From assembly GCA_903904545.1 (NCBI GenBank), contig CAIVDB010000135.1, positions 1 to 14,469 on the forward strand: DNA of 14,469 nt, read 5' to 3'. Made by a program: the position numbers and the translations under genes. Source of the stretch: an uncultured bacterium. GTDB lineage: Bacteria > Patescibacteria > JAEDAM01 > Absconditabacterales > Absconditicoccaceae. Shown here one piece after another: positions 169-14,363 of the stretch; within the stretch, counting starts at the first letter, position 1, and each line of letters starts with the position of its first letter. Under the pieces are notes generated by a model, which was given only the letters and a program-made list of their open reading frames with translations, made no database searches and was not told the DNA's origin.

Positions 169-3069
169 ATGAATATCTGGAGAAAAATAGCACTCTACAG
201 TTTGTGATCTGCTTGCATTTTTGTAAGTAGTTTTTCTGCATCTCAAGCAACATTTCTCGAAGAGATGGATACAATGGGGATAGATACCACTGCCCTTCAG
301 GGACAAAAAGGCGTTTCTCGTTATGAAATCACAAGACTTCTCAATGCAAGTGAATGTAAAGATTGTCTCCATCCTGCACAGACAAGCATAGATAAATATA
401 CATTATTATTTCGGACTACCTTTGCTGCGACACCGGGCAAAGATTTTGGAGATATTTCTTATTTACAAGCACTCGCAGAAGAAAATAATTATTATTATTG
501 TGTCGCCTATGTAGGAGATCAAAACTATATGAGAGGATATCCCAAAAGCACGAGTCCTATTTGTGCAGGAAGATTCTGTGGACAACAACTCACTACCAAA
601 GCAGAATTTATCCAGATCATTGTAAATCTCCTCTCGAAATATTTATATGAAGGGACACAGATGCCATGGAAGGCAGCAAATCAACGAATACAAAAACTAA
701 AAATAGACAGTTATGAAGCCAAATCTTTTACCACAGAAGAAAAGAAAATCATTAATGAGGAATCCAAAAGGTGTGATAAAGACGTTTGTTATCTCACTAC
801 TGCAAATCATATGCAACTGTATCTCAAATATTGTATGTTCAATCTCTCAAGTTGTGGCATGCAAGTATTTGAATGATTAAAACAATGATATTGGCCAGTA
901 GCCGAAGTAAATATGTTGTACAAACAAAATATCATTACGCTCAATGAAGACCTTCGAAAAAAGAGTTATGAGATAGTAGATGGCAAAACTGTTCTTGCAA
1001 TCCTAAGTAATGTATACAATAAGATTCAATGTAGCTTCAATGACGATTATGACTGTGATAGCATTATAAACAAAGATGATAACTGCCCAAACGATTACAA
1101 TCCTCACCAAAAAGACACAGATAAAGACAATGTCGGCGATGTATGTTCTCGTGATGTTGATGGAGACAAGATAAACAATCCGATAAATATTGTCGATGAC
1201 ACCAATCGTATCAATATCAGAGTATTGCAATGACGAACAGGACAATTAGATAATTGTTTGTATACTCAAAACACAAACCAAGAAGATAGTGATAACAATG
1301 GAATAGGAGACCTATGCGATCAAAACAATAAGGCATATGGGCTCAGTATTGCTATAGACAAAGTAGAGGGCATTGCACCACTCAAAATAGAATTTAAAGC
1401 AATAGGAGAAGGAATAAGCGAAAACATTCAACGAGATTTTGGAGATGGACAGCAAAGCAAAGGGATAAAAACTACGCATACGTTTCTTCTTCCAGGGACT
1501 TATCGCATACAGGCAGTCGAAAAGACAGGAAACCGAGTACTAAAAGCACAAAACATCATCATTGTAGGCGGACAAAGAGAGAAACAGACAGCACTACAAG
1601 CAAAAGCAAATAGTATAGGAAGCAAAGAAACCAAAGAGTTTATATTCAATGCGTCTGCAATTGGAGATGTAGATGCTATTGTTCGATCTTTCTCCGATAC
1701 AGATCAAAGTAAAAAAACACCTCAAGAAACAGTTCGTAAACTACTCCCTCCAGGACAATACACGGTCACGCTCAAAGCCAACAAAGGAAACGAAATTCAA
1801 GCAATCAGCATGTTTACTTTAGCAGTAGGGGAAAATAAGGGAAGTATGCTCAAGAGTAGTTTTCTCAATCCAGATACAAAACAGAAAACAGACTTTCAAA
1901 CAGAGATGTTCGGGTTTTCACAAGATGATATTGCATATGTTCAGTGGGATTTCGGAGACGGAACCTTGATAACCAACCAAGACCTGGCTACTTCGCACAC
2001 ATATACACAAGGAGGCAAAAGAGCTGTAGTCCAAAAAATACATTTCACCGATGGAACCCAATTAACAAACATTATTACACTCTATAGTATAGACAAGACA
2101 CTTCTTCGTTCATATGCACTCACGCTACACGCAGAAAAATTTGTAGGAAACGTAGGAGAAACCATATCTTTCATAAGCAAAATAGTAGGAGATAATGTAC
2201 TAGGAACCAGTACCTTTGTACAGAGATTTTCAAATGAAAAATCAGAAACAATAAACAAAGAAATAGCATTTCCTATCAAGAAACAATATTCATATACAGA
2301 AAGCAATCTCTACTATCCAGAAAGTGACCTCTTTATCAACCAATGCACGTATCTCAAAGCACAAGCAAGCATATATATCCAAGGAGAAGATAGTTGTCTT
2401 CAAGCAAAAAAAGATGGTAGCTTACTCAGAAAATACAGATGCGACAAAGACAAGGATAAGATCCCAGATGTCTGTGATGATGATATTGATGGAGATAGCA
2501 TCAAAAATACTATTGGAATCATCACTCACGAACAAACAAATTGTCTTATAGATAAAAACAATATTGATGAAGCGTTAATTCAAAATCAAAGCAGATGAAT
2601 ATGTTCACTAGACAATGCTCCTTTCGATGCCAATCCTCAACAAGAGGATCTCAATGGAGACTATATTGGTGACGCAAACACTATCCCTTTCACTATAGAA
2701 AAGACACAGAAAGATGCAGATGGCGATGGAATACCTGATGATAGTGATCTGTGTCCCTATATTCATGGCATGGGATCACCAAATGGATGTCCAGAAATAG
2801 ACGAAACTTGCTGAACAAATGCTACTGATGCTAGCGACCAAGCTCCAATACTTTCCTTAGAATGCAATCAATGCCCTTGCCAATATACCGATTTCATACA
2901 AAACTTAACGAATGGTGACCAGGTAAAAGCTGTACTTCGAGACAAAGAAAAAAAAAATACTCTACAATTATTCTCTTCCACGAATAGTCAATTTCTAATA
3001 AAGGATATTTTTATTAATCAAAAAAAGACTGATAATCAAATCAGTCTCTATCTTTTTCTTATAAAATAA
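169..3069 (+). CDS. Secreted PKD / thrombospondin type-3 repeat surface protein
   Basis: Predicted exported, calcium-binding surface protein of 966 residues with six in-frame UGA (Gly) codons at 205, 874, 886, 1231, 2596 and 2812. The N-terminus is a signal peptide (MNIWRKIALYSLGSA, ending near SASQA) that only appears when UGA at 205 is read. Residues 1-285 are Cys-rich and unrecognised. Residues about 290-395 carry Asp-rich thrombospondin type-3-like repeats (DxDxDxxxDxxDNCP). Residues about 393-465 and 563-640 are PKD domains with DFGDG; 468-560 and 643-725 are degenerate PKD-like units. More Asp repeats lie at about 758-788 and 850-878 (DADGDGIPDDSDLCP). I chose ATG at 169 because it gives the signal peptide and fits the promoter. 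The final codons run through a terminator hairpin after an A10 tract, so the true C-terminus may be frameshifted and shorter. The role may be adhesion or contact with a host cell, but this is inference. The domain calls are secure. Confidence 0.88.
3026..3058. terminator. Terminator hairpin, probably bidirectional
   Basis: An 8-bp stem AGACTGAT (3026-3033) / ATCAGTCT (3040-3047) with a 6-base loop, flanked by six As on the left and CTATCTTTTT on the right. It lies between two convergent genes and can serve both. It sits upstream of the annotated stop of the plus-strand gene at 3067-3069, which is unusual. Confidence 0.75.
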
Positions 3070-3080
3070 ACTCCGACACT

Positions 3081-3108
3081 AAGCATTACGCATTAAACAT
3101 TAAGCATT
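3081..3108. repeat. Heptamer tandem repeat, array 2 (4 units)
   Basis: Four consecutive 7-base units: AAGCATT, ACGCATT, AAACATT and AAGCATT. The last unit contributes two of the three bases of the ferredoxin stop codon (3107-3109). Confidence 0.75.
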
Positions 3109-3289
3109 ATTCTGCGATTGCATCTACAGGACATGCCTTCATTGCTTCAGTAAATGCAGCCTCTTCCTCTGGAGTTTCTGGTTGTTTACTCGCTAATGCT
3201 TTACCATCTACATCCAAAACAAACAAATCTGAATGAACATTAAAACATAAGCTACAAGTAATACACTTATCTTTATCGACTATAGACAT
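3107..3289 (-). CDS. Single-cluster [4Fe-4S] ferredoxin
   Basis: Sixty residues, small soluble electron carrier. Cluster ligands are visible as C9-x2-C12-x2-C15 and a distant C53 followed by Pro (CPVDAI), the usual pattern of one-cluster ferredoxins. The second cluster motif of 2[4Fe-4S] ferredoxins is absent. An acidic stretch (PETPEEEAAF) lies between the halves, as is common in the family. There are no UGA or CGA/CGG codons. It starts at ATG without a clear Shine-Dalgarno site and ends inside a heptamer array. It converges with the surface-protein gene and shares its terminator. Its redox partner cannot be told from the context. The family call is firm. Confidence 0.93.
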   Translation of the reverse strand: MSIVDKDKCITCSLCFNVHSDLFVLDVDGKALASKQPETPEEEAAFTEAMKACPVDAIAE

Positions 3290-3327
3290 ATTCTACCATT
3301 ACAAATTAAAAAGATAATTTTCCTACG

Positions 3328-3369
3328 CTATTCACTATTAACTATTCACTGTTAGTTATTAGTTATTCA
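3328..3369. repeat. Heptamer tandem repeat, array 3 (6 units)
   Basis: Six 7-base units in exact register: CTATTCA, CTATTAA, CTATTCA, CTGTTAG, TTATTAG, TTATTCA. The last unit holds the stop codon and final codons of the membrane-protein gene that ends at 3363. The units gradually change along the array. Confidence 0.75.
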
Positions 3370-3947
3370 TTCTCAAAAAGTCCATGCAAAGATTGTTTAT
3401 TATGTACTTCTCTGATTGCTTCTTCATCGACAACATTTACGATCTTAGTATGGTTACCATTTTCTTTAGCATGCTTGATCACAGACAACAAGGTAAGTAC
3501 GAGTCATAAAAGGAGAAAAAGTTGAACAAAATAATATGAACTAGTAACATTGATAGTCTGTGTTGTACTAGATACCACATTGATAGTATCTCCTATAGAC
3601 AAAAACGAAGTTGCAATAATCCAAAGAAAACCAAAGTTTACAAGAGCATCATTCTCTTTGAATCCGAAATACCCAATAACAAAGTTTTTAAATTGGAAAC
3701 TCATATTCCAAGCGAATAAGACAGCCACACAAGCCAGTACAATCAAAAATGTTTTGAAGAGATGGCCATTGAGCAACCAAATACTATGTGCAGAATCATT
3801 GACAGGAGTTATTCTAATAATAGGAAGGACAAGCAAAAGAAAGGCCAAAACAAAAAGATACAACACAAATACCTTCTGCTGCTTAGTAAATCTCGTAAAT
3901 CTGTGAAAAAATCTTAAGAAATGTTCTACAACATGATTTTTTTTCAT
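3363..3947 (-). CDS. Small polytopic membrane protein, unknown function
   Basis: 194 residues, not recognised. The N-terminus is basic and Phe/Arg-rich (HFLRFFHRFTRF), followed by four hydrophobic segments at about residues 27-44, 61-80, 102-120 and 136-156, and then a charged, probably cytoplasmic tail of about 40 residues. One UGA at 3504-3506 (minus strand) lies inside the last hydrophobic segment (LFLLL-G-LVLTLL). Under the standard code the protein would lose its tail at this point. Arginines are all AGA. The stop codon lies in heptamer array 3. It is 73 bases downstream of the two-helix membrane protein on the same strand, so it may belong to the same transcript. No catalytic motif is visible. 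Confidence 0.75.
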
Positions 3948-4020
3948 ACGAACAATGAAGAGAAAGTAAAACTACACTACAAAATGTAATCATTTACAAA
4001 AAGTTTGCAATATCAAATAA

Positions 4021-4458
4021 TTAAAGCTGATATCCATCTACAGCAGGCTCTTGAAGAGACGGGGTAGCGTCTGGATTATAATAAGGATTCCCACGAAATT
4101 GATTATCTTCTTGGCTTTGTTTGACTACATTTCCTAGCTTCAAAATATAGGTAATTACATCGCCAACTCTCACAAAAACGTGTTTAGCAGAATATGCTTC
4201 ATAAGAGGGAACATTTACTGCCCTCAATACAGTAGGAACAAAAAATAGAAGCACAACAGAAAGAAGCACTCCTATAATCATAAACCTGATACTATTCCAT
4301 CCCTTTTTTTTATTATCCTCCTTGGCACCAGAGAAGACAAAAAGGATAATAGCGCGTACAAAAGTATACATACATCATATGATAATAAGCAACACAACAC
4401 ATGCTAAGATGGTTAATATAGCGTTTTGAAATGTTGCTTGATTATACAATGCCGACAT
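4021..4458 (-). CDS. Two-helix membrane protein, possibly VirB2/TrbC-like pilin
   Basis: 145 residues. The start at 4458 (MSALYNQATF) requires reading UGA at 4375-4377 as Gly inside the first hydrophobic segment (VVLLIII-G-C); the shorter start at 4371 would cut the first helix in two. Two long hydrophobic segments, at about residues 12-42 and 60-82, flank a positively charged loop (GAKEDNKKKGWNSIR). A polar tail rich in Gln, Asn and Pro follows. Two helices joined by a short basic loop is the layout of VirB2/TrbC pilins, but there is no sequence match I can vouch for and no other type IV secretion gene is near. It lies 37 bases downstream of rpsP on the same strand and is probably co-transcribed. 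Treat it as a hypothetical membrane protein. Confidence 0.7.
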
Positions 4459-4495
4459 AGAAAATCATACGGAATAAAAAAGGACAAAAAAAAGA

Positions 4496-4795
4496 CTATT
4501 TTTTCTCTTCTTTCTTCGTTTTTGCCGTTCTTGTTCTTTCTACAAAGAATTTTTGGAAAAGAACATCCTTTGTTTGAGCAAACAACAACTTTGCAACTCT
4601 CTCTGAGAGTTGAGCTCCTTTTGCTATCCATTCTTTGATAGCGACAACATCTACTTCCAAAGTATGTTTCATAGGATCAAATCGTCAAAGAACGGATTGA
4701 TAACCAGATTTAGCTGGTTTAGTGTGCTCAGTAAGAACAACTCTATAGAAAGGAAGTTTAGTTCTTCCATGTCTAGATAATCTGATAGATAACAT
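4496..4795 (-). CDS. rpsP: 30S ribosomal protein bS16
   Basis: 99 residues, a full-length small-subunit protein. The N-terminus MLSIRLSRHGRTKLPFYRVV matches the family's IRLxRxGxKKxPFYxIVV signature. Next comes a gap to VLG-x-FDP, the usual (V/L)GxYxP turn, then the helix VDVVAIKEWIAKGAQLSERV and a Lys/Glu tail. The G of VLG is UGA (minus strand, 4685-4687), where the family has Gly. The next codon is CGA (4682-4684), at a position often aromatic in this family. All other arginines are AGA. There is no Shine-Dalgarno site before ATG. It lies between rpmG and the two-helix membrane protein on one strand. Confidence 0.96.
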
Positions 4796-4822
4796 GTACA
4801 ATAACATAACAGAATAAAAGGA

Positions 4823-4999
4823 TTATTTCATTTTTTCTCTAGAAGCATGTACTGTTCTCTTCTTATCTTTTTTACAGTACTTTTTAAGTTCTATTTTCCC
4901 TGTTGTTGTTTTATTGATACTGGTATGATATCCAGTAGTTCAACAATCTTTACACTGCATAGCAACAGTAATTCTTCATGTTTTCTTTTTTGCAGCCAT
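4823..4999 (-). CDS. rpmG: 50S ribosomal protein bL33
   Basis: 58 residues, full length. MAAKKKTGRITVAMQCKDCG matches the family, with the first zinc-type CxxC intact (C16, C19). The hallmark LKKYCKKDKKRTVH follows, where only one Cys of the second pair is kept (Y-C-K-K). UGA codons encode G7 and G20 (4976-4978 and 4940-4942). The second follows CKDC directly. Both would truncate an essential protein under the standard code. It lies downstream of tRNA-Met and its relic and 27 bases upstream of rpsP, so the tRNAs and ribosomal genes are probably one unit. There is no Shine-Dalgarno site. Confidence 0.96.
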
Positions 5000-5060
5000 A
5001 ATAATACCAAAATAATAAATTAAAAACGGATATGTGAGTGACGGGTAACACAATTAAGTT

Positions 5061-5150
5061 TAGCACCGGGGCAGATTTACCTGCCATAGGTAGGCTCGAA
5101 CCCAGCCTTGCGGGGCGGGCCGCCTGACCTCGCTATATACTTTATGGGCG
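5061..5150 (-). pseudogene. Broken copy of the tRNA-Met 3' half with inserted GC-rich palindromes
   Basis: On the minus strand this segment repeats the intact neighbouring tRNA piece by piece: CATAA of the anticodon loop, GCGAGGTC, GGCGG, TTCGAG, CTGCCC and GGTGCTA. These blocks are split by insertions: about 8 bases after CATAA, a GC-rich piece (5102-5118, CAGCCTTGCGGGGCGGG on the plus strand), and an imperfect palindrome (CCTGCCATAGGTAGG, 5080-5094). The direct repeat with the real gene spans 5056-5075 versus 5168-5186. No 5' half or acceptor partner is present, so it cannot fold as a tRNA. It lies in the leader of rpmG. Confidence 0.65.
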
Positions 5151-5172
5151 GATAATTTGATTGTAATAAGTT

Positions 5173-5246
5173 TAGCACCGGGCAGACTCGAACCGCCGAC
5201 CTCGCCCTTATGAGAGGCGCGCTCTAACCACCTGAGCTACGGTGCC
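5173..5246 (-). tRNA. tRNA-Met (CAU), elongator-like
   Basis: 74 bases with a complete cloverleaf: acceptor GGCACCG/CGGTGCT, D stem GCTC/GAGC, anticodon stem CGCCT/GGGCG with loop CTCATAA, and T arm GGCGG TTCGAGT CTGCC. The discriminator is A and CCA is not encoded. The anticodon is CAU. The initiator's three G-C pairs below the loop are absent, and the 5' half (GGC-CGTAGCTCAG-TGGTTAGAGC) closely resembles elongator tRNA-Met. A tRNA-Ile2, with C34 modified to lysidine, cannot be excluded from sequence alone. Confidence 0.93.
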
Positions 5247-5257
5247 ATAATCGAACT

Positions 5258-5341
5258 AATAGTGAATAATTAATAACTAAAAGTACTTAATGCTTAACTT
5301 TTAACTTTTAACTATTAGTTTTTAGTTTTTAGTTTTTAGTT
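5258..5341. repeat. Heptamer tandem repeat, array 4 (12 units)
   Basis: Twelve 7-base units in unbroken register, drifting from AATAGTG, AATAATT, AATAACT through CTTAATG, CTTAACT, TTTAACT (twice) and ATTAGTT to TTTAGTT (three times). This is the longest array and fills the space between tRNA-Met and tRNA-Ser. The drift along the array suggests stepwise growth and decay of units. Confidence 0.85.
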
Positions 5342-5361
5342 TTAAAGTTTGTAACTCAATT

Positions 5362-5448
5362 CGGTGAGGGCGGGATTCGAACCCGCGGGCCGATTACTCG
5401 GCCGACTCGTTAGCAGTGAGCTGACTTCGACCACTCATCCACCTCACC
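5362..5448 (-). tRNA. tRNA-Ser (GCU)
   Basis: 87 bases, a class II tRNA. The acceptor GGTGAGG/CCTCACC is fully paired, with discriminator G. The long variable arm is a perfect 6-bp stem (GGCCGA-GTAA-TCGGCC), and the T arm is GCGGG TTCGAAT CCCGC. The anticodon loop CTGCTAA gives GCU, which reads AGU/AGC serine codons. The base pair next to the loop is an A-C mismatch, which is mildly unusual. CCA is not encoded. Confidence 0.95.
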
Positions 5449-5489
5449 AAACACCAAAAAATAATACCAAAAAATTACAAGGTGGTCAG

Positions 5490-5517
5490 TGTATACGTAA
5501 TTGATGTTGAATTTCAA
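5490..5517 (-). promoter_or_regulatory. Promoter of the tRNA-Ser / tRNA-Met / rpmG / rpsP strand
   Basis: Reading on the minus strand: TTGAAA (5512-5517), a 16-base spacer, and TATACA (5490-5495). The start would fall near 5483, 35 bases before tRNA-Ser. The spacer length equals that of the two strongest promoters in the window. Confidence 0.5.
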
Positions 5518-5534
5518 GCATAAAACAATAAATT
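5507..5534 (+). promoter_or_regulatory. Weak candidate promoter for the 198-residue protein
   Basis: TTGAAT (5507-5512), 16 bases, TAAATT (5529-5534). It is divergent from, and overlapping, the tRNA promoter. The -10 match is poor. It would give a leader of about 60 bases. Confidence 0.3.
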
Positions 5535-5602
5535 CTCTTCAAATAAGGATAAAAAAGAAAAAACCACTAAAAAAAGTACTTTTTACTCTTTTGAGAAAGA
5601 AT

Positions 5603-6199
5603 ATGGCAAACGAAACAGGAGGAATAGGAATCGAAGATATGTGATGAGAAATCAGAGAAGACGCAAATAAGGTTACAGAGGAAGCAGTTAGACGTGTACA
5701 GGACAACCAAAAAAAAGCACAACAAGTAGCACAACAGATACAAGATGATAAAGATCTCAACGATAAATTTGCTCAATTTCTTATTTTTCTATTAAGAGCA
5801 ATAAACAACGAAAAACTGATCAAAACACTGTATGAAGCATTTTTCACAACAAAAAACCCAAAAACACAACTTACCTATATCAGAAAGAACATAAACACAA
5901 TAGTGATTGTAGGGATGTTTGCTCCCTTTTACCCAGAAAAAATCCAAGAATTTCAATTAGACGATTTTTTCAAAACCCTCCCCTATTTTACAGAGACAAA
6001 CACAGCCACAGGATATATCGAGTACCTCAAATCACTGTCAAAAAAACATCATGACAATATTCCTCTAGAAAAAGAAGCTCTCCTGGATTTTCTTGGAGAA
6101 ATACTCATAGAATATCATCTAATCAACACAAAGCAAATGAATAGCCAAGAGAAACAAGATCTCAAAGAAAGTCTACGTAAAACACTCTATAGCAAATAG
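5603..6199 (+). CDS. Hypothetical helical protein with tandem UGA glycines
   Basis: 198 residues, not recognised. It starts at ATG 5603 behind a purine-rich stretch (GAGAAAGAAT) that is at best a weak ribosome binding site. The first 12 residues are Gly-rich; then two adjacent UGA codons (5642 and 5645) give GG. A charged Gln/Lys/Glu helix at about residues 16-50 looks like a coiled coil (QDNQKKAQQVAQQIQDDKD). The rest is predicted mostly helical, with a moderately hydrophobic stretch near residue 55 (FAQFLIFLLRAI) and another near 100 (NTIVIVGMFAPF). Neither is clearly a membrane segment. There are no catalytic motifs. It lies upstream of the giant repeat protein on the same strand, but the latter has its own promoter. 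A structural or partner role is possible, but nothing proves it. Confidence 0.75.
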
Positions 6200-6252
6200 A
6201 AACATATTTTCAAACAAATGTCAATCCATTCTTTCTTAGAAAAAGACTTTTT

Positions 6253-6280
6253 TTGACATAAGGACTCTTTTGGATATAAT
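6253..6280 (+). promoter_or_regulatory. Strong sigma-70-type promoter of the giant repeat protein
   Basis: Perfect TTGACA (6253-6258) and perfect TATAAT (6275-6280) with a 16-base spacer. The start would be near 6287, leaving a leader of about 40 bases before ATG 6328 that contains no Shine-Dalgarno sequence. Confidence 0.8.
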
Positions 6281-6327
6281 TACTAGAGAAAAACAAATCA
6301 TCTAGTATTTATTCTTTGCATACTATC

Positions 6328-9300
6328 ATGCCAGAAAAGATAACGATTGATGCCCTAGAGGACTTCAAAGAACAGCAATTAATCGCAGACGATGTTCCTG
6401 TATTGCAGAACGAATCAGATTTTGATACAATATACCAAAAAACTATAGTAAATCATGGTATAGATTTTTTCAATGATAAGGAAAGTAAGATCATCAGCAA
6501 AAAGGACTGATCTTTTATCATTGCAAAACAACAGGAAGATGGAAGTTTAGTAGCGGCATTGATTATCCTAGACAAAAAAGAACTCAAACAGTTTATCAGC
6601 AAAGTTATCGATAAATATAATAGAGAAGCCTTATCAAAACTCTCTTCAGATGTTCAAAGACAAGTAGAGGTTACCTACGTTCCAGAAGGAAAAGATAAAA
6701 AGGCTGAAATACAAATCACGGTCAAAGAGCAACTTCATGAACTCAAAGAAGAAGTCATAGGACTCGCAGACATAGAAAAACTACTCAATACCTTAGATAA
6801 TCAAGAAAGATCAACAAGAAAAGAAATAGGAAAAGGACAATTCCATGAATTAAGAAAATTATTGGAGAAACAAGAACCAGAAACTCTTATTGCGCAACAA
6901 AATATAGAAATTTTCACAACACTTATCAATCAAGCAAAAGAGAAACACATTGATGTCATCAGAAAAGACATTGAACTCATCAAGAAAAATAAATTTACAC
7001 AAAATCATGCAGAATTTACAAGCATATCTAAGGCAAAATTAGCATATATCCATGCACAATTTTCTGAAATAGAAAGATATGTGCTCAATACCGACAATAT
7101 GCAAAAACCGTTTGATACCAGCATCTACAACATCGACACAGCACTCTACTCTATTGCAGACATCACTAAATTAGCCTCAGCAAGTAATAATCAAAATAGA
7201 GAGGTCAAAAACATCAATGGAATAGCATTCAATACTGCACTTTCCAAATTAGATCTTGAAGAAGCAGATGGATTTAGACAATATCTCAATGAAGTGTTGA
7301 GTGGAAAGATTGATCCAAAAAAACAACAATATCATCCTAAAAAGGCAGAATCATTCCAAAAAATGTTAGCAGAAATGCCAATGCTCAAATGATATGTAGA
7401 TATCAAAGAGACAAATCCAGAAAAAAAACAGAGAAAAGAAGAAAATAATGACGGAGTATATGGGAGAAGAGGAAGCTCTAAGAGCAAAGAACATGGACCA
7501 AATACATGATCTGAAAATAATAAAGAATATTCACAACTTTCTGAGGAGATTCCAGAAACAAACAGCAAAAGAGGACAAGACATCAAAAATATGGATCGAG
7601 AACAAACCTACAGTACCTATGGAGCAGAAGGGGGACTAAGAAAAGTATTAGACTACTCCAATGCGTCAGAAACACAAAAAGATGCACTTACTAAAATGAT
7701 TTACTTAGGAGTGCTTGGATTTGGTCTGTTCAAAGGGGGAAAACGATTCATCTCTGGATCAAAAGGCGCTGATGGGAAGGCTACCACATCATTTCTAGAA
7801 AGATTTGGGATGGTTGCATGAGGTTGGGTAGGCTCCATCTTAGGAACAGGAAAGAATCCTATAGAACTGATTGGAGGACTACTCAGTGGAGACATATCAG
7901 GATTCAAAAACATTGGGAAGTTACGAAACAAATCAGCAGAAAACGCAACAGAATATGCAAATACCAATGTAATGTATCCATTATACACGACTATGTTATG
8001 GGGACAAACAAAAATCAAGGATCTTAAACCACAAATAGATGCAAAAACGGGGAAGATGCTCAATTATGATCAAATGATGGCAAATATCACAGACAAGAAA
8101 GTCCAAAACACACTTCAGAAGGAAATAGGAAAAGACGACAAGAACAATATTGTCCCTACAGGATTGGCCCAATTGGGTATTAGACCTGATAGCATAGACA
8201 ATCTTGATCAGGAAAAAACTGTAGATGATATGTATCTCCTCTATATGACAAATATGCAAACAGCAGAGAGTTATAGAACAGAAAATGGACTAATCACTAC
8301 AAAACAAGGGGATGAAGAAATCAAAAAACTGGTTACCTCAGGAGAAGAACTCACAAAGAAAGATTTTGAAGCGCTCAATGAAAAATGAGGGATGTATACC
8401 AAAGAAGCAAAAGCAGAAACAGCAGAGGACAAAAGCAACAAGGCGAAACTCCATACACAGATAGATGCATTAGACCTTACAAGTGAAGAAAAAGAAAATG
8501 TAAAATTAGGAATAGATAATTTCTATAATCGATTACCTGCTGGGATCAACAAAAAACAAGTAGCAATCATCCAAGAAAATGGAATCACTTATCTCCAAAC
8601 ATGAGCTCAAAAACAAGAAAGGACAGCTATAGATGTATGAGCTAAAGCACTAAAAGGATTTTCTCATGCGTTTGGAAGTTATTTTGATCTGTTTGCCAGT
8701 GCTCATCTTACCAATAGAATGAAAGAAGTTTTTGGAGAAAAAGCAGCAAAATCCGAAAATCCATTCCATGTAGAAAAAGTTACTGGAAATATAGTATATG
8801 ACGACACATCGTTATGGGAATTCTACAAAAAAGATACTACGGCAGTTTCCGCAGGACGATTTACTTCCAAATTGGAAACCATTTCTCCTGTACTAGAAGC
8901 AAACAAAGACGATTATGTTGATTATCTCAATAGATCCAAGAATTGGAAAATAGCTAATTCACCTAGCGTTATTCCTGCTATTTGAGCCGCTATCTGAAGT
9001 GGAGTCGAAAAAGTAAAGAATGCGCTAAGAGGGAATCAAGAAAGAAGAGAGCGTACTCAAGAAGATTTTCACGGACTAGATGATAAGATCAACAGACTAT
9101 GTGGAAACGATACTGCCAAAGCAAAGGAAATCTCCAAGGCAATGAACGAGTTCTACAATCAGATGCCAAATGCAGATAGAACTATAGATATCCAAGGAAG
9201 TCGACCCGTCATAGAGTTTATGACGTATACTAATAGCACAAAAATCAATCTTGCTAATAAGTGATTAGATGGATTCACTCCATCAAGAATGACTAGTTAT

Positions 9301-10092
9301 CTAGAGCTTTTCAAAGCGGCGAATCTCACTAATTATATCAAGATGGTCTGCAATGAACAGAAATCCAAAAAAGCACTTCCTTTCTATGTGGGCAATCCTG
9401 GAAGAGATATCGTATTTGACAACAAATCCATCCGAGCACTCTCTTTGGATACAGAAGTTGTCTCTGCAGGACGAGGAGGATCACTCAATAAAATCTCTCC
9501 TACTTTAGAGAAATTCAAAGACGATTATGTAGATTATCTCAATAGAAATCGAGATAAATCAGGACTCTACGAAGAAGTAAAAGAAATCACTGAGGGGAAC
9601 AAAGAAAGACAAAGAGTACTTACAGAAGCACTCAATCTCTTCCATGAATCTATGCCAAATGGAGAAAGGAAGATAAACATCTGAGGAAGTCGAGAGAAAC
9701 TATCCATAAGAACCTATGGAATATCTACCGAGGTCAATATGGAGAAAAAAAGTCTTGCTGGAATACCTGGAAACAGTTTAGATGCCAATAGAGTAAAATT
9801 TACAGAAGCAAACTTCCCTACACATCTCGAACTGTTCAAGGCCACAAGTCTTACGAATAGAATCAGAAACATATATGGTCCTCAAGAAGGAACTGCAGCA
9901 CCATTCAATATTTCGATAGGAGGAGATGTTGAATTTGCTCATAGTTGACTCCTAAAACGTGACACAGAAGTTATATCATGAGGATTGGGTGGAGAACTCC
10001 ACGGGATATCTTCTACACTAGAAGACCACAAATCCGCCTACGTCAAATATCTCAACCAAATACGAGCAATAGATAGAAAACAATATGAATAG
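6328..10092 (+). CDS. Giant hypothetical protein with three C-terminal repeats
   Basis: 1254 residues, not recognised; 13 in-frame UGA codons (6508, 7390, 7507, 7819, 8386, 8602, 8638, 8983, 8995, 9262, 9682, 9946, 9979). Start is ATG 6328; TTG 6316 would add four residues. Residues 60-360 are long charged helices, probably coiled coil. Residues 360-450 are polar and low in complexity. Two Gly-rich hydrophobic stretches near 458-475 and 490-520 (GMVAGGWVGSILG) could insert in a membrane. Three diverged repeats lie at about 727-873, 935-1077 and 1098-1249. Each contains a FYNxMP-like start, xLFKAxxLTNxI, PFxV, DTxVVSAG and a closing KDDYVDYLNR. There is no signal peptide and no enzyme motif. 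A strong promoter and a clear terminator make it a single-gene unit. A large surface-, envelope- or cell-contact-related structural protein is possible, but this is a guess. Confidence 0.85.
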
Positions 10093-10149
10093 GACAAAAA
10101 AAAGACCGAAAAATAATTTCTCTTGCATATTCCAGGAGAAGTAAGTATA

Positions 10150-10188
10150 AACACTGAAAAGAAAAACCGAACACTTTCAGTGTTTTTT
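10150..10188 (+). terminator. Rho-independent terminator of the giant repeat protein
   Basis: A perfect 10-bp stem, AACACTGAAA (10150-10159) / TTTCAGTGTT (10175-10184), with a 15-base loop, followed by TTTT. It sits 57 bases after the stop codon and 17 bases before the next gene's ATG. Confidence 0.85.
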
Positions 10189-10205
10189 ACTGTCTACTCA
10201 GCAAA

Positions 10206-11204
10206 ATGACTATTTCCAGACAGCTCGATATTTACGGGAAAAAAGTCCTTCTTGCGGGATTCCGATCACACCAAAATATGTGAGATGAGCTTATCTTATT
10301 GGGAAACATCAAACTCCTCCAACAGCAAAAAAAGGAAATATACGTTATTGCCCACGATCCAAAATGAATCGAAGATTTTCTCAAACAATCAATAGACACA
10401 ACTGACATTACATTCCTTCAAGAGATGCCCAGAGGGATTAGAAGCATATGGAAGTATATAGTTTCTAAAAAATACAAACAAATAAAATCTTTTTTCACTA
10501 TTGATACGATTATTTTGGGAGGAGGAGAAATACTTACTGAAGAATCTCCTCATGCTTATTATTACCGGCTACGATCTATACGACCGGCACTCTTTTTAGG
10601 CAAGACATTGTACCTCATGGGAGGGATCCAAATACCCAAGAAACGATACAATAGACTCTTATGTAAACGAATTTTTCTCCACACAAAAAAAATATATTCT
10701 AGAGACAAAGAAGAGATTGAGAACATTCAAACATTCGGATACAAAGACGTAGATTTCTTTATGGATACAAGTTATTTCGCCTTAGATAATCGAAAAAAAT
10801 ACTATCATATCAGTTCGCAAAAATACATCATTATCAATATCAACAGTAAATGATTACACTATCTTCCAGAGCTTTGCAAAGAAATCATTGATTATGCCAA
10901 GGAAGGATATACAAGCACGTATATTTCGGTCTGCAAAGGGATAAGTGACGACGATTCCAAACACTTTAACGCAATCCAACAAATGCTTCCCAATATGTAC
11001 AAATCATTTCTTCAACAAAAGGATCGATCAGAAGATTTTATCTGATTCATCAAATACCTTGGAGGAGCACACAAGGTGATAAGTACTAGACTCCATCTCT
11101 TTTTGATTAGTGAGTTTATAGGGATCGAAACACAAGTATACCCCTATCAAAAAAAAATAAATAAAATGAAAAAGATTATAGATGAAATGAAAGATGAAAT
11201 TTAA
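10206..11204 (+). CDS. Polysaccharide pyruvyltransferase family protein (CsaB-like)
   Basis: 332 residues. Members of this family transfer pyruvate from PEP as a ketal onto cell-surface sugars, though some act differently. Visible signatures: an N-terminal GFxSHQNMGDELIL at about residues 18-31, with the G of GDE encoded by UGA at 10281; ILGGGEILTEESPHAY near residue 105; an MGGIQIPKK segment where many members have the GIGP loop; and the C-terminal STRLHLF near residue 293 that is diagnostic of the family. Four UGA codons (10281, 10365, 10851, 11043). Nine CGA/CGG codons cluster in a hydrophobic helix (YYYxLxSIxPALFLGK) and other places where Trp fits better than Arg, while the invariant R of TRLH is AGA. 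It overlaps the following GT2 gene by 11 bases, so the two are translationally coupled. Its substrate is probably a surface glycan. Confidence 0.87.
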
Positions 11205-12159
11205 TTTTTTCAAAAGACACATGCAAAAATTAGAATGTTCTGTCATCATACCTGTTTTCAATGAAAAAGAAGGAATCAAAGATTTTCTACAATCTATCTA
11301 TGAACAAACGAGACACCCTAATGAAATTATTGTCATCGATGGAGGGTCTACAGATGGCACCTACGAGTATCTTCAAACACAAGAAAAACAAGGAAAACTC
11401 AAAGCATATAAACATCCATCCAATATTGCTCAAGCAAGAAATTTTGCGATACAAAAAACAAAACACGAAATCATTTTATGTACTGATGCATGATGTAAAG
11501 TAGACAAACATCGATGTGAAGAAATTATGCACATATACGAAACCACACAAGAACTCGTTGTAGGAGGGAAATCCGAACTTTTAGGAGAAAATGCGTTCCA
11601 AAAGAAAGCAAAACTCCGTTTCATATCAGCAGACCCCAACTTTCATTTTATCTCTTCCAGAAACATTTCCTTTCACAAGAGAATTCGAGAAGAAGTAGAA
11701 TGATATCCAGAATACCTTACAAAACGATGAGAAGATACTTATTTCAACTACAAGATTGAACAAGCAGGATATAAGATTTTTTATTGTCCAACGGCGATAG
11801 TATCTCGGCATATGGGGAAAGATTACAAAGCATTTTACACTATGTATAGAAATTATACTCAAGGCGATGCTGAAGTATATATGATCCATCACATCATACA
11901 AAGTGGAAGTTACAAACAGGCAATTTTAGGGACTCTTGTTGGTGGGATCCTTCTTTCTTGTATACTCTACTTCCCAAGATATAGTGGAGAAATAGTTCTG
12001 GTTTCTCTTGTAGGGATTGGCTTATACAAACGTAGTCCTGGAGGATTTTGGTTTGATTTAAAATTTAGTATAGGGAAATTATTAGGCACAATCATAGGAT
12101 TCCGAAAAGGGATATATACAGGATATACAATCAAAAAGACAATTAAGAAAGCGAAGTAG
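11194..12159 (+). CDS. Family 2 glycosyltransferase with C-terminal membrane segments
   Basis: 321 residues. A GT-A fold inverting sugar transferase, probably acting at the inner face of the membrane in surface-glycan assembly. Motifs: SVIIPVFNE at 16-24, the nucleotide-binding IDGGSTDGT at about 48-56, CTDAG near 96-100 in place of the DxD, and GYPEYL...GEDTYF near 171-184 containing the catalytic-base region. Residues about 246-290 form two hydrophobic segments. UGA codons at 11491 (DAG), 11701 (EG-YPE) and 11728 (GEDT) all match conserved glycines. Four CGA/CGG codons (11512, 11686, 11725, 11806) lie where relatives commonly have Trp or another aromatic. The start at 11194 overlaps the previous gene; ATG 11221 is an alternative start lacking nine residues. 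The 3' end overlaps the flippase gene. Confidence 0.92.
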
Positions 12160-13463: not shown

Positions 13464-14363
13464 TTATCTACCAAAAGTCCCTCTAATGATTGCCTTAATG
13501 ATTTTCCATCTCGTCACCTCATGTCCATAGATACATACTTTCAGGATCAACCACAAAGGCTGTCCAAGGAATCCAAAACTATAAAATTGGAGTTTATTCC
13601 AAACATTTCCATACTTTTTCACAAAGAGCATTCTATGTTTTGCCTTCCTATACGCTGCATATTCATTACCCACCCATGCATGTTCCAAAAGAGTTTTATC
13701 TCTTTCCATATGATAAATTTTGAGATCACGCAAGACAATGATCGGATATCCTTGACGATGAATACGATACGTAAAATCTAAGTCTTCATAAACAAAATCT
13801 AGCTGTTCGTCAAACAAAATCTGCTGAAAAATATATGCAGGAGCAAACAAAGAATTTCCTGAGTACATTTGGATAGTATCTCGTTCTTTTTGGAGATGGA
13901 GTGGAATAGGTCTACTCAAAAAATAGTTAAAATGAGAAAATCCCTGATTTTGGATAGTTCAGGTTTTCCTGTACATCAAAGTAGGGGTAAGAACAAAGTC
14001 TTTATCTGATTTCTCTCTATATCTACCTCGTAAAGAAAGATTTTTCTCAAGATAATCGCTATCAAATTGCTCATCATCATCCATCAAAAGAATATACTCC
14101 CCTTTCGCCGCTTTGATTCAGTAATTTCTTAAGACACTTGCATTATTGTTGGGACGAAGTGAAGAATTGAGATTGGTAATAACATGGAAACGAGTATCTA
14201 TATTTTTCAAACCAGAATTTGTAATTCGTAATTCGTAATCCGCAATTGTTTTATCCACAACAAAAATAACTTCAAAATCCTCAAAAGTCTGTGCCTGTAA
14301 ACACGTAAGGATATTTTCCATATTCTGATCTCCTCTCGTGGGGATAACAACACTAATCTTCAT
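13464..14363 (-). CDS. Family 2 glycosyltransferase
   Basis: 299 residues, a GT-A sugar transferase. MKISVVIPTRGD opens the nucleotide-binding domain. ASVLRNYGIKAAKGEYILLMDDDE (quoted here only as its end, LMDDDE, at 93-98) holds the metal-binding DxD. EDLDFTYRIHRQGY near residue 200 is the ED-x-D-x-x-x-R acceptor-site motif, followed by IYHMERDKT. UGA codons at 14118-14120 (NYG) and 13959-13961 (TG) are read as Gly; the first is at the usual N-x-G-x-x-x-A-x-G position. Residues 38-50 (KTIADYELxITNS) are encoded by a heptamer repeat array that appears inserted in frame. It runs just ahead of the flippase on the same strand, so both probably serve one glycan pathway with the opposing gene pair. 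It has no clear Shine-Dalgarno site. Confidence 0.92.
14216..14250. repeat. Heptamer tandem repeat, array 5, inside a coding sequence
   Basis: Five 7-base units: AATTTGT, AATTCGT, AATTCGT, AATCCGC, AATTGTT. Because 7 and 3 share no factor, three units give seven codons, so an array of this unit on the minus strand reads as a heptapeptide repeat (YELxITN) without stops. It lies early in the GT2 gene. Confidence 0.75.

What the first reader, a model, noticed from the sequence alone, without database searches (positions are those of the whole stretch)
1432..11808. CGA and CGG appear to be read as tryptophan, on top of UGA = glycine
Seen directly: in the first PKD domain the codon before DFGDG is CGA (1432); in the other clear PKD domain the same position is TGG (1945). 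A degenerate PKD unit again has CGA there (1684). In the giant protein, repeat 1 has DDTSL-TGG (8815) where repeat 2 has DNKSI-CGA (9433). After VSAG, repeats 1 and 2 have CGA (8857, 9472) while repeat 3 has TTG (Leu, 9985). In the plus-strand GT2 enzyme CGA/CGG fall at 11512, 11686 and 11806, where relatives commonly have Trp or another aromatic. In the pyruvyltransferase a hydrophobic helix holds three of these codons. Recognisable conserved arginines (bS16 RLxRxGR, TRLH, bL33) use AGA. From memory, a CGA/CGG to Trp change was proposed by a computational screen in some Absconditabacterales; this window fits that clade and suggests the ordinary code-25 translation is still wrong for it.
Basis: partly seen in the sequence, partly recalled or inferred. 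Interest (0 to 1): 0.85.

Follow-up and report, generated by a model that had tools for sequence, protein, structure and literature searches.

The report
Arginine codons CGA/CGG read as tryptophan
In this uncultured bacterium two codons that mean arginine in almost every other organism appear to be read as tryptophan; the change was already predicted for its group in 2021, and here the recycled codons seem to have become the commonest way to write tryptophan, so database proteins from the group carry the wrong amino acid at these places.

Summary
By bS16 the window lies in the order of RAAC1_SR1. Its 12 ORFs hold 33 CGA and 3 CGG against 26 TGG. At those 36 codons, aligned genes of relatives in the order carry TGG in 168 cells and an unambiguous Arg codon in 5; at the window's own Arg codons the figures are 4 and 604. 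In four genes over 48 genomes plus the window, CGA sits in Trp columns 388 times and Arg columns 3; CGG 74 and 3. In the order, tRNAs with anticodons UCG and CCG look Trp-type (G73, no A20) in 21 of 22 and 23 of 23 distinct complete sequences; 9 of 9 distinct UCG sequences from other orders of the class have A73. Shulgina and Eddy (2021) predicted exactly this code for Absconditabacteria, with rare, not yet rebounded codons (CGA below 37 per 10,000). Here CGA is 75 per 10,000 and CGA+CGG are 36 of 62 presumed Trp codons; they reach half in 17 of 41 sampled stretches. That advanced takeover is what I did not find in print. The window's own tRNAs could not be seen.

The parts
169..3069 (+). PKD / thrombospondin type 3 surface protein; 7 CGA + 1 CGG (412, 685, 955, 1234, 1432, 1534, 1684, 2938), 4 TGG
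   Evidence: columns 412 (TGG 22, CGR 7), 685 (21, 9), 1432 (15, 15), 1684 (20, 8, Ile 2) over 29-30 genomes; PKD profiles gain about 14 bits with Trp
4496..4795 (-). bS16; CGA at 4684, 7 AGA at conserved Arg
   Evidence: column of 4684 has TGG 10, Ser 9, CGR 2 in 21 genomes
6328..10092 (+). giant repeat protein; 11 CGA, 4 TGG
   Evidence: 9472 TGG 6, CGR 3; 9202 CGR 5, Gly 6, TGG 1; most other columns variable or empty
10206..11204 (+). polysaccharide pyruvyltransferase; 7 CGA + 1 CGG, 1 TGG
   Evidence: columns 10263, 10566, 11025 hold only CGA, CGG or TGG in the genomes aligned (29-30)
11221..12159 (+). GT2 glycosyltransferase; CGA 11512, 11686, 11725, 12103 and CGG 11806
   Evidence: TGG or CGR at the first three and 11806 in the two relatives with DNA; Trp/Arg mixtures in 38 database proteins
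13464..14363 (-). GT2 glycosyltransferase; CGA 14228, 14030, 13883, 4 TGG
   Evidence: 14030 CGR 15, Tyr 5, TGG 4; the other two columns variable
5172..5247 (-). tRNA-Met (CAU), one of the only two tRNAs in the window; no UCG or CCG tRNA here
5361..5449 (-). tRNA-Ser (GCU), the other tRNA in the window

Best explanation
The window comes from an uncultured member of Absconditabacterales (SR1) that reads UGA as glycine and both CGA and CGG as tryptophan. Most likely one tryptophanyl-tRNA synthetase charges three tRNAs: the ordinary one (anticodon CCA, reads UGG), one with CCG (reads CGG) and one with UCG (reads CGA and, by wobble, CGG). Arginine keeps AGA/AGG (tRNAs UCU, CCU) and CGU/CGC (tRNA GCG). 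In this lineage the recycled codons have spread until they outnumber UGG. Shown by sequence: interchange of CGA/CGG with TGG and hardly ever with Arg codons; Trp-type marks on UCG and CCG tRNAs of relatives; one TrpRS match over the cut-off in 45 of 49 genomes. Inferred: the window's own tRNAs, the charging itself, the wobble, and that reading is complete rather than mixed.
For: Window genes: relatives' codons at its 36 CGA/CGG are TGG 168, Arg 5; at its 94 Arg codons Arg 604, TGG 4. Order: ValRS of 44 genomes, CGA in Trp columns 196 and Arg columns 0, CGG 33 and 0, AGA 5 and 486; four genes, CGA 388 and 3, CGG 74 and 3, with 256 of 649 CGA and 47 of 124 CGG cells in mixed or other columns. 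tRNAs: UCG Trp-type in 21 of 22, CCG in 23 of 23 distinct complete order sequences; UCG of other orders A73 in 9 of 9. RAAC1 holds GCG, UCU and CCU tRNAs for Arg. PKD profiles gain about 14 bits with Trp. Published prediction for the clade.
Against: The pyruvyltransferase profile scores 3.3 bits lower and PF10111 0.6 bits lower with Trp. Six CGR cells lie in Arg-majority columns; five share one column where two other genomes have TGG, one (G018) stands alone. One Arg-type UCG tRNA in an order genome (L105). 13 of 49 genomes had no match to the UCG pattern and 6 of 49 none to the CCG pattern. G003, G032 and G033 gave no decisive cell. The window's own tRNAs are unseen.
Confidence: 0.96

Rival explanations
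1. CGA and CGG keep their standard meaning, arginine; table 25 is complete and the aromatic neighbours are coincidence.
For: Pyruvyltransferase profile 3.3 bits better with Arg; databases translate so.
Against: TGG 168 against Arg 5 at the window's CGR columns; CGA 388 Trp columns against 3 Arg; Trp-type UCG and CCG tRNAs.
Confidence: 0.01
2. Mixed decoding: CGA/CGG give mostly Trp and some Arg, as a transition state.
For: Sequence comparison cannot exclude it; one Arg-type UCG tRNA in one genome (L105).
Against: No CGR in Arg columns of ValRS in 44 genomes; heavy use of the codons at conserved Trp positions; the one Arg-type copy carries encoded CCA and resembles outgroup tRNAs, so it may be a foreign contig (not tested).
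Confidence: 0.03
3. The codons stand for another aromatic residue, Phe or Tyr.
For: Some columns hold mainly Phe or also Tyr (9433 Phe 10; 14030 Tyr 5); G013 has CGA in three Phe/Tyr columns of the PKD protein.
Against: In the conserved columns the partner codon is TGG; tRNA marks are Trp-type.
Confidence: 0.003

Closest known systems
Absconditabacteria code of Shulgina and Eddy 2021 (eLife 10:e71402, PMC8629427)
   Same: Same clade, same codons, same new amino acid, on top of UGA = Gly; same explanation by Trp-type UCG and CCG tRNAs with Arg kept by a GCG tRNA (section 11).
   Different: They had six species and rare codons (CGA below 37 per 10,000 in all, not yet rebounded). In this window CGA is 75 per 10,000 and more frequent than UGG, and 24 of 40 sampled order genomes also exceed 37 (whole longest ORFs, not Pfam-aligned columns as theirs).
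CGG = Trp in Anaerococcus and in a clade of Bacilli (same paper)
   Same: Arg codon of the CGN box taken over by Trp.
   Different: Only CGG changes there; CGA stays Arg through inosine tRNA; other phylum.
AGG = Met in uncultivated Bacilli (same paper)
   Same: A reassigned Arg codon that has become the dominant codon of its new amino acid.
   Different: Other codon, amino acid and phylum. The paper contrasts it with CGA/CGG as the more advanced case; that contrast does not hold for part of this order.
NCBI table 25 (SR1 and Gracilibacteria)
   Same: UGA = Gly.
   Different: Leaves CGA/CGG as Arg, which the alignments contradict.

Membership tests
Absconditabacteria code (UGA=Gly, CGA/CGG=Trp) | Organism belongs to the clade | tested here: met
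   bS16 search of 145 genomes of RAAC1's class: 136 match, and the 21 order members of the sample rank above every other genome; named hits Absconditabacterales / Absconditicoccaceae. Order name for the handles is recalled.
Absconditabacteria code (UGA=Gly, CGA/CGG=Trp) | UGA is a sense codon (Gly) | tested here: met
   42 in-frame TGA in the 12 ORFs; RAAC1 has a UCA tRNA ending in U73. The Gly meaning was not tested column by column.
Absconditabacteria code (UGA=Gly, CGA/CGG=Trp) | CGA stands in conserved Trp columns | tested here: met
Absconditabacteria code (UGA=Gly, CGA/CGG=Trp) | CGG stands in conserved Trp columns | tested here: met
   Order: 74 Trp, 3 Arg. Window has only three CGG: 412, 10566 and 11806, all in TGG/CGR columns, the last with two relatives only
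Absconditabacteria code (UGA=Gly, CGA/CGG=Trp) | UCG and CCG tRNAs with Trp identity marks | tested here: inconclusive
   Met in relatives (21 of 22 and 23 of 23); not visible for the window's own genome
Absconditabacteria code (UGA=Gly, CGA/CGG=Trp) | Low G+C and Arg written mainly as AGA | tested here: met
   G+C 0.35; AGA 94 of 124 AGR+CGY codons
Absconditabacteria code (UGA=Gly, CGA/CGG=Trp) | Trp found in protein at CGA/CGG | not testable with these tools
   Needs mass spectrometry; section 11 of the 2021 paper also says only experiment can establish it
NCBI table 25 as written | CGA and CGG mean Arg | tested here: not met

The most novel reading that the evidence does not exclude
In a large part of the order, this window's lineage included, the takeover has gone through: CGA/CGG are no longer rare relics but the main way to write tryptophan, with UGG the minority codon. 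At pooled conserved Trp columns of three genes CGR is the majority in 21 of 48 rows (47 genomes and the window), up to 22 of 22 in one genome (G009) that prefers CGG; in whole stretches 17 of 41 rows reach half. The order would then show the stages of a sense-codon capture, from almost none to near replacement, side by side.
Probability: 0.8. Interest if true: 0.55.

Novelty: already known. Interest (0 to 1): 0.42.

Why it matters
Sense-codon changes in bacteria are few, and this one rested on a computational inference from six species with rare codons. The present counts support it strongly at the sequence level, set it off from the sampled other orders of the class (A73, mostly A20 UCG tRNAs there) and show genomes at many stages of takeover, which makes the order a natural series for testing how a sense codon is captured. 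In practice proteins of the clade translated by table 25 have Arg where Trp belongs, often at the most conserved positions, which harms homology searches, structure prediction and expression of these proteins.

Tried and rejected
Rejected idea: that Trp moved to CGA/CGG to escape misreading of UGG by the UGA-reading glycine tRNA. It predicts more CGR where UGA is used more. Spearman is -0.05 (p 0.74) over 41 stretches and -0.30 (p 0.07) over 38 rows with conserved-column shares. G+C does not predict the CGR share either (0.06, p 0.70).

Left open: the origin of the UCG and CCG tRNAs. With the anticodon masked, both are on average 0.69 identical to the nearest Trp-CCA tRNA and 0.61 (UCG) or 0.63 (CCG) to Arg-GCG; in RAAC1 the UCG tRNA is nearest to Trp (0.70) but the CCG tRNA to a Gln tRNA (0.73). 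A simple recent copy of tRNA-Trp is not shown.

Did not work, or limits: the single-protein genome scan found nothing. One search used wrong frames for the PKD and ferredoxin genes, so its counts for them and its totals are not used; one search replaces it. Relatives of the GT2 gene at 11221 were found in two fetched genomes only, at a cut-off of 1e-40. In one search overlapping loci were counted more than once; one search counts each genome once. The pattern matches include other tRNAs, and lack of a match in a partial genome is not loss. In one search, L350 (other order, A73, D-loop unlike Arg) and L231 (CCG tRNA cut by the stretch end) are no evidence either way. A20 was found by script in 5 of the 9 other-order UCG sequences and by eye in 3 more; that A20 marks Arg tRNAs is recalled, while G73 and no A20 for Trp is in the 2021 paper (passage). 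Codon counts rest on longest ORFs; 3.0% Trp in G030 suggests some wrong ORFs there. A pattern for the Trp-type UCG tRNA found nothing in viral contigs, so nothing is said about phages. No structure was predicted.

Papers: PMC8629427 section 11 whole and passages; passages only of PMC13092985 and PMC10746230; the rest as search listings. Searches for reports of the takeover: in an open-access library only; nothing listed there reports it.
Full report
What was checked. The 14,469-base window was read on both strands under table 25. Twelve ORFs (169-3069+, 3107-3289-, 3363-3947-, 4021-4458-, 4496-4795-, 4823-4999-, 5603-6199+, 6328-10092+, 10206-11204+, 11221-12159+, 12143-13480-, 13464-14363-) hold 4,374 codons: CGA 33, CGG 3, TGG 26, AGA 94, AGG 8, CGT 20, CGC 2, TGA 42. 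No genome is held for the window and ARAGORN finds only a Met and a Ser tRNA in it, so relatives had to serve.

Where it comes from. Named hits of the pyruvyltransferase and bS16 include Candidatus Absconditabacterales and Absconditicoccaceae, and an alignment-based scan reached RAAC1_SR1_1 (L016, CP006913.1). In a sample of 145 genomes of RAAC1's class the window's bS16 matches 136; the 21 genomes of RAAC1's order in that sample take the 21 best places. Kin of the giant protein and of the pyruvyltransferase lie side by side in several relatives (for example G005, G008, G009).

Codon meaning in the window's own genes. Relatives' DNA was aligned to six window proteins with CGA/CGG masked as X, at most one codon per genome and column. 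At the 36 CGA/CGG codons the relatives have TGG 168 times, an Arg codon (AGA, AGG, CGT, CGC) 5 times, CGA/CGG 167 times and other residues 327 times. At the window's 94 Arg codons in these genes they have Arg 604, TGG 4, CGA/CGG 12, other 934. Seven columns with 29-30 genomes each hold TGG and CGR almost alone (412, 685, 1432, 1684, 10263, 10566, 11025); four GT2 columns (11512, 11686, 11725, 11806) do so with two relatives only. Seven of the 36 columns hold neither TGG nor Arg, and many others are mostly other residues. In the pyruvyltransferase three columns hold only CGA, CGG or TGG over 30 genomes (gaps aside), while the Arg columns 79, 166 and 295 hold no CGA or CGG. Database proteins show the same as Trp/Arg mixtures: residue 20 R64/W46, 121 R73/W46, 274 R59/W59 of 119 sequences. 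Profile scores are mixed: with Trp instead of Arg, PKD_4 57.8 to 71.5, PKD 42.4 to 56.7, PF00535 77.8 to 80.2, PF13641 24.5 to 28.1 bits, but PS_pyruv_trans 53.6 to 50.3 and PF10111 30.2 to 29.6.

Codon meaning across the order. ValRS from 44 genomes: CGA at Trp-majority columns 196, at Arg-majority columns 0; CGG 33 and 0; AGA 5 and 486; each cell judged on the other genomes' codons, CGR left out. With the pyruvyltransferase, the minus-strand GT2 and the PKD protein added (48 genomes and the window): CGA 388 Trp, 3 Arg, 171 mixed, 85 other, 2 too few; CGG 74, 3, 32, 15, 0. Of the six Arg cells five share one GT2 column in which two further genomes have TGG; one (G018) stands alone. G003, G032 and G033 gave no decisive cell, G013 one.

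Decoding machinery of relatives. RAAC1 has tRNAs UCG, CCG and CCA, and for Arg GCG, UCU and CCU. By the marks used in the 2021 paper for Trp (G73, not A20; passage) the UCG tRNA is Trp-type in 21 of 22 distinct complete order sequences, CCG in 23 of 23, CCA in 24 of 24. The exception, L105 in G032, has A73, A20 and encoded CCA, unlike its kin; it may be a foreign contig, which was not tested. Nine distinct UCG sequences from ten genomes of other orders of the class all have A73, with A20 in five by script and three more by eye. TrpRS: 45 of 49 genomes have one match over the cut-off, one (G024) has two, three have none, so a second, dedicated synthetase is not the rule.

How far the takeover has gone. 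In stretches of 6-20 kb from 40 genomes and the window, CGA+CGG make 4% to 69% of CGA+CGG+TGG (window 61% in its longest ORFs, 36 of 62 over its 12 ORFs), at least half in 17 of 41 rows; CGA alone exceeds TGG in 10. CGA is above 37 per 10,000 in 24 of the 40 genomes and in the window. At conserved Trp columns of three genes CGR is the majority in 21 of 48 rows. RAAC1 gives 35 per 10,000 in this count, within the 2021 bound of 37, so the higher values elsewhere are unlikely to come from method alone, though the 2021 figures are for Pfam-aligned columns and mine for whole ORFs.

Judgement. The reassignment was predicted for Absconditabacteria by Shulgina and Eddy (2021), with Trp-consistent tRNAs, and is taken up in a 2026 paper (PMC13092985, passages). 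The window is therefore an instance of a known code. New here, as far as the six searches named under Tried and rejected show, are the size of the support, the contrast with sampled other orders of the class, and the advanced takeover. None of the passages I read reports Trp in protein at these codons.

Noticed in passing
window 5061-5160, beside tRNA-Met 5172-5247 (minus strand): By eye, a broken partial copy of the neighbouring tRNA-Met 3' half (agtttagcaccggg...ctcgaacc) with extra sequence inside; looks like a degenerate tandem duplicate.
   Followed up: no
window 14221-14241, inside the minus-strand GT2 gene: By eye, a short direct repeat (attcgtaattcgtaat) runs through the coding sequence and supplies the CGA at 14228, whose column is variable in relatives; this CGA is weak evidence for any meaning.
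   Followed up: partly
L105 (G032:C58): Arg-type UCG tRNA (A73, A20, encoded CCA) in one order genome, against 21 Trp-type ones: a foreign contig or a real leftover.
   Followed up: no
ValRS loci L193-L222 and the matches: Two kinds of ValRS in the order: about 800 residues matched in one piece, or about 1000 residues matched in two pieces broken near profile position 430-440, i.e. with a large insert.
   Followed up: no
window 169-3069 and L385-L414: The PKD / thrombospondin-3 surface protein has a match in 47 of 49 genomes of the order: a near-universal surface protein of the group without known function.
   Followed up: no
G009 (L007, L145, L218, L229): This genome uses CGG 16 and CGA 6 times and TGG never at 22 pooled conserved Trp columns, though TGG is 17 of 46 in a 20-kb stretch.
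   Followed up: partly
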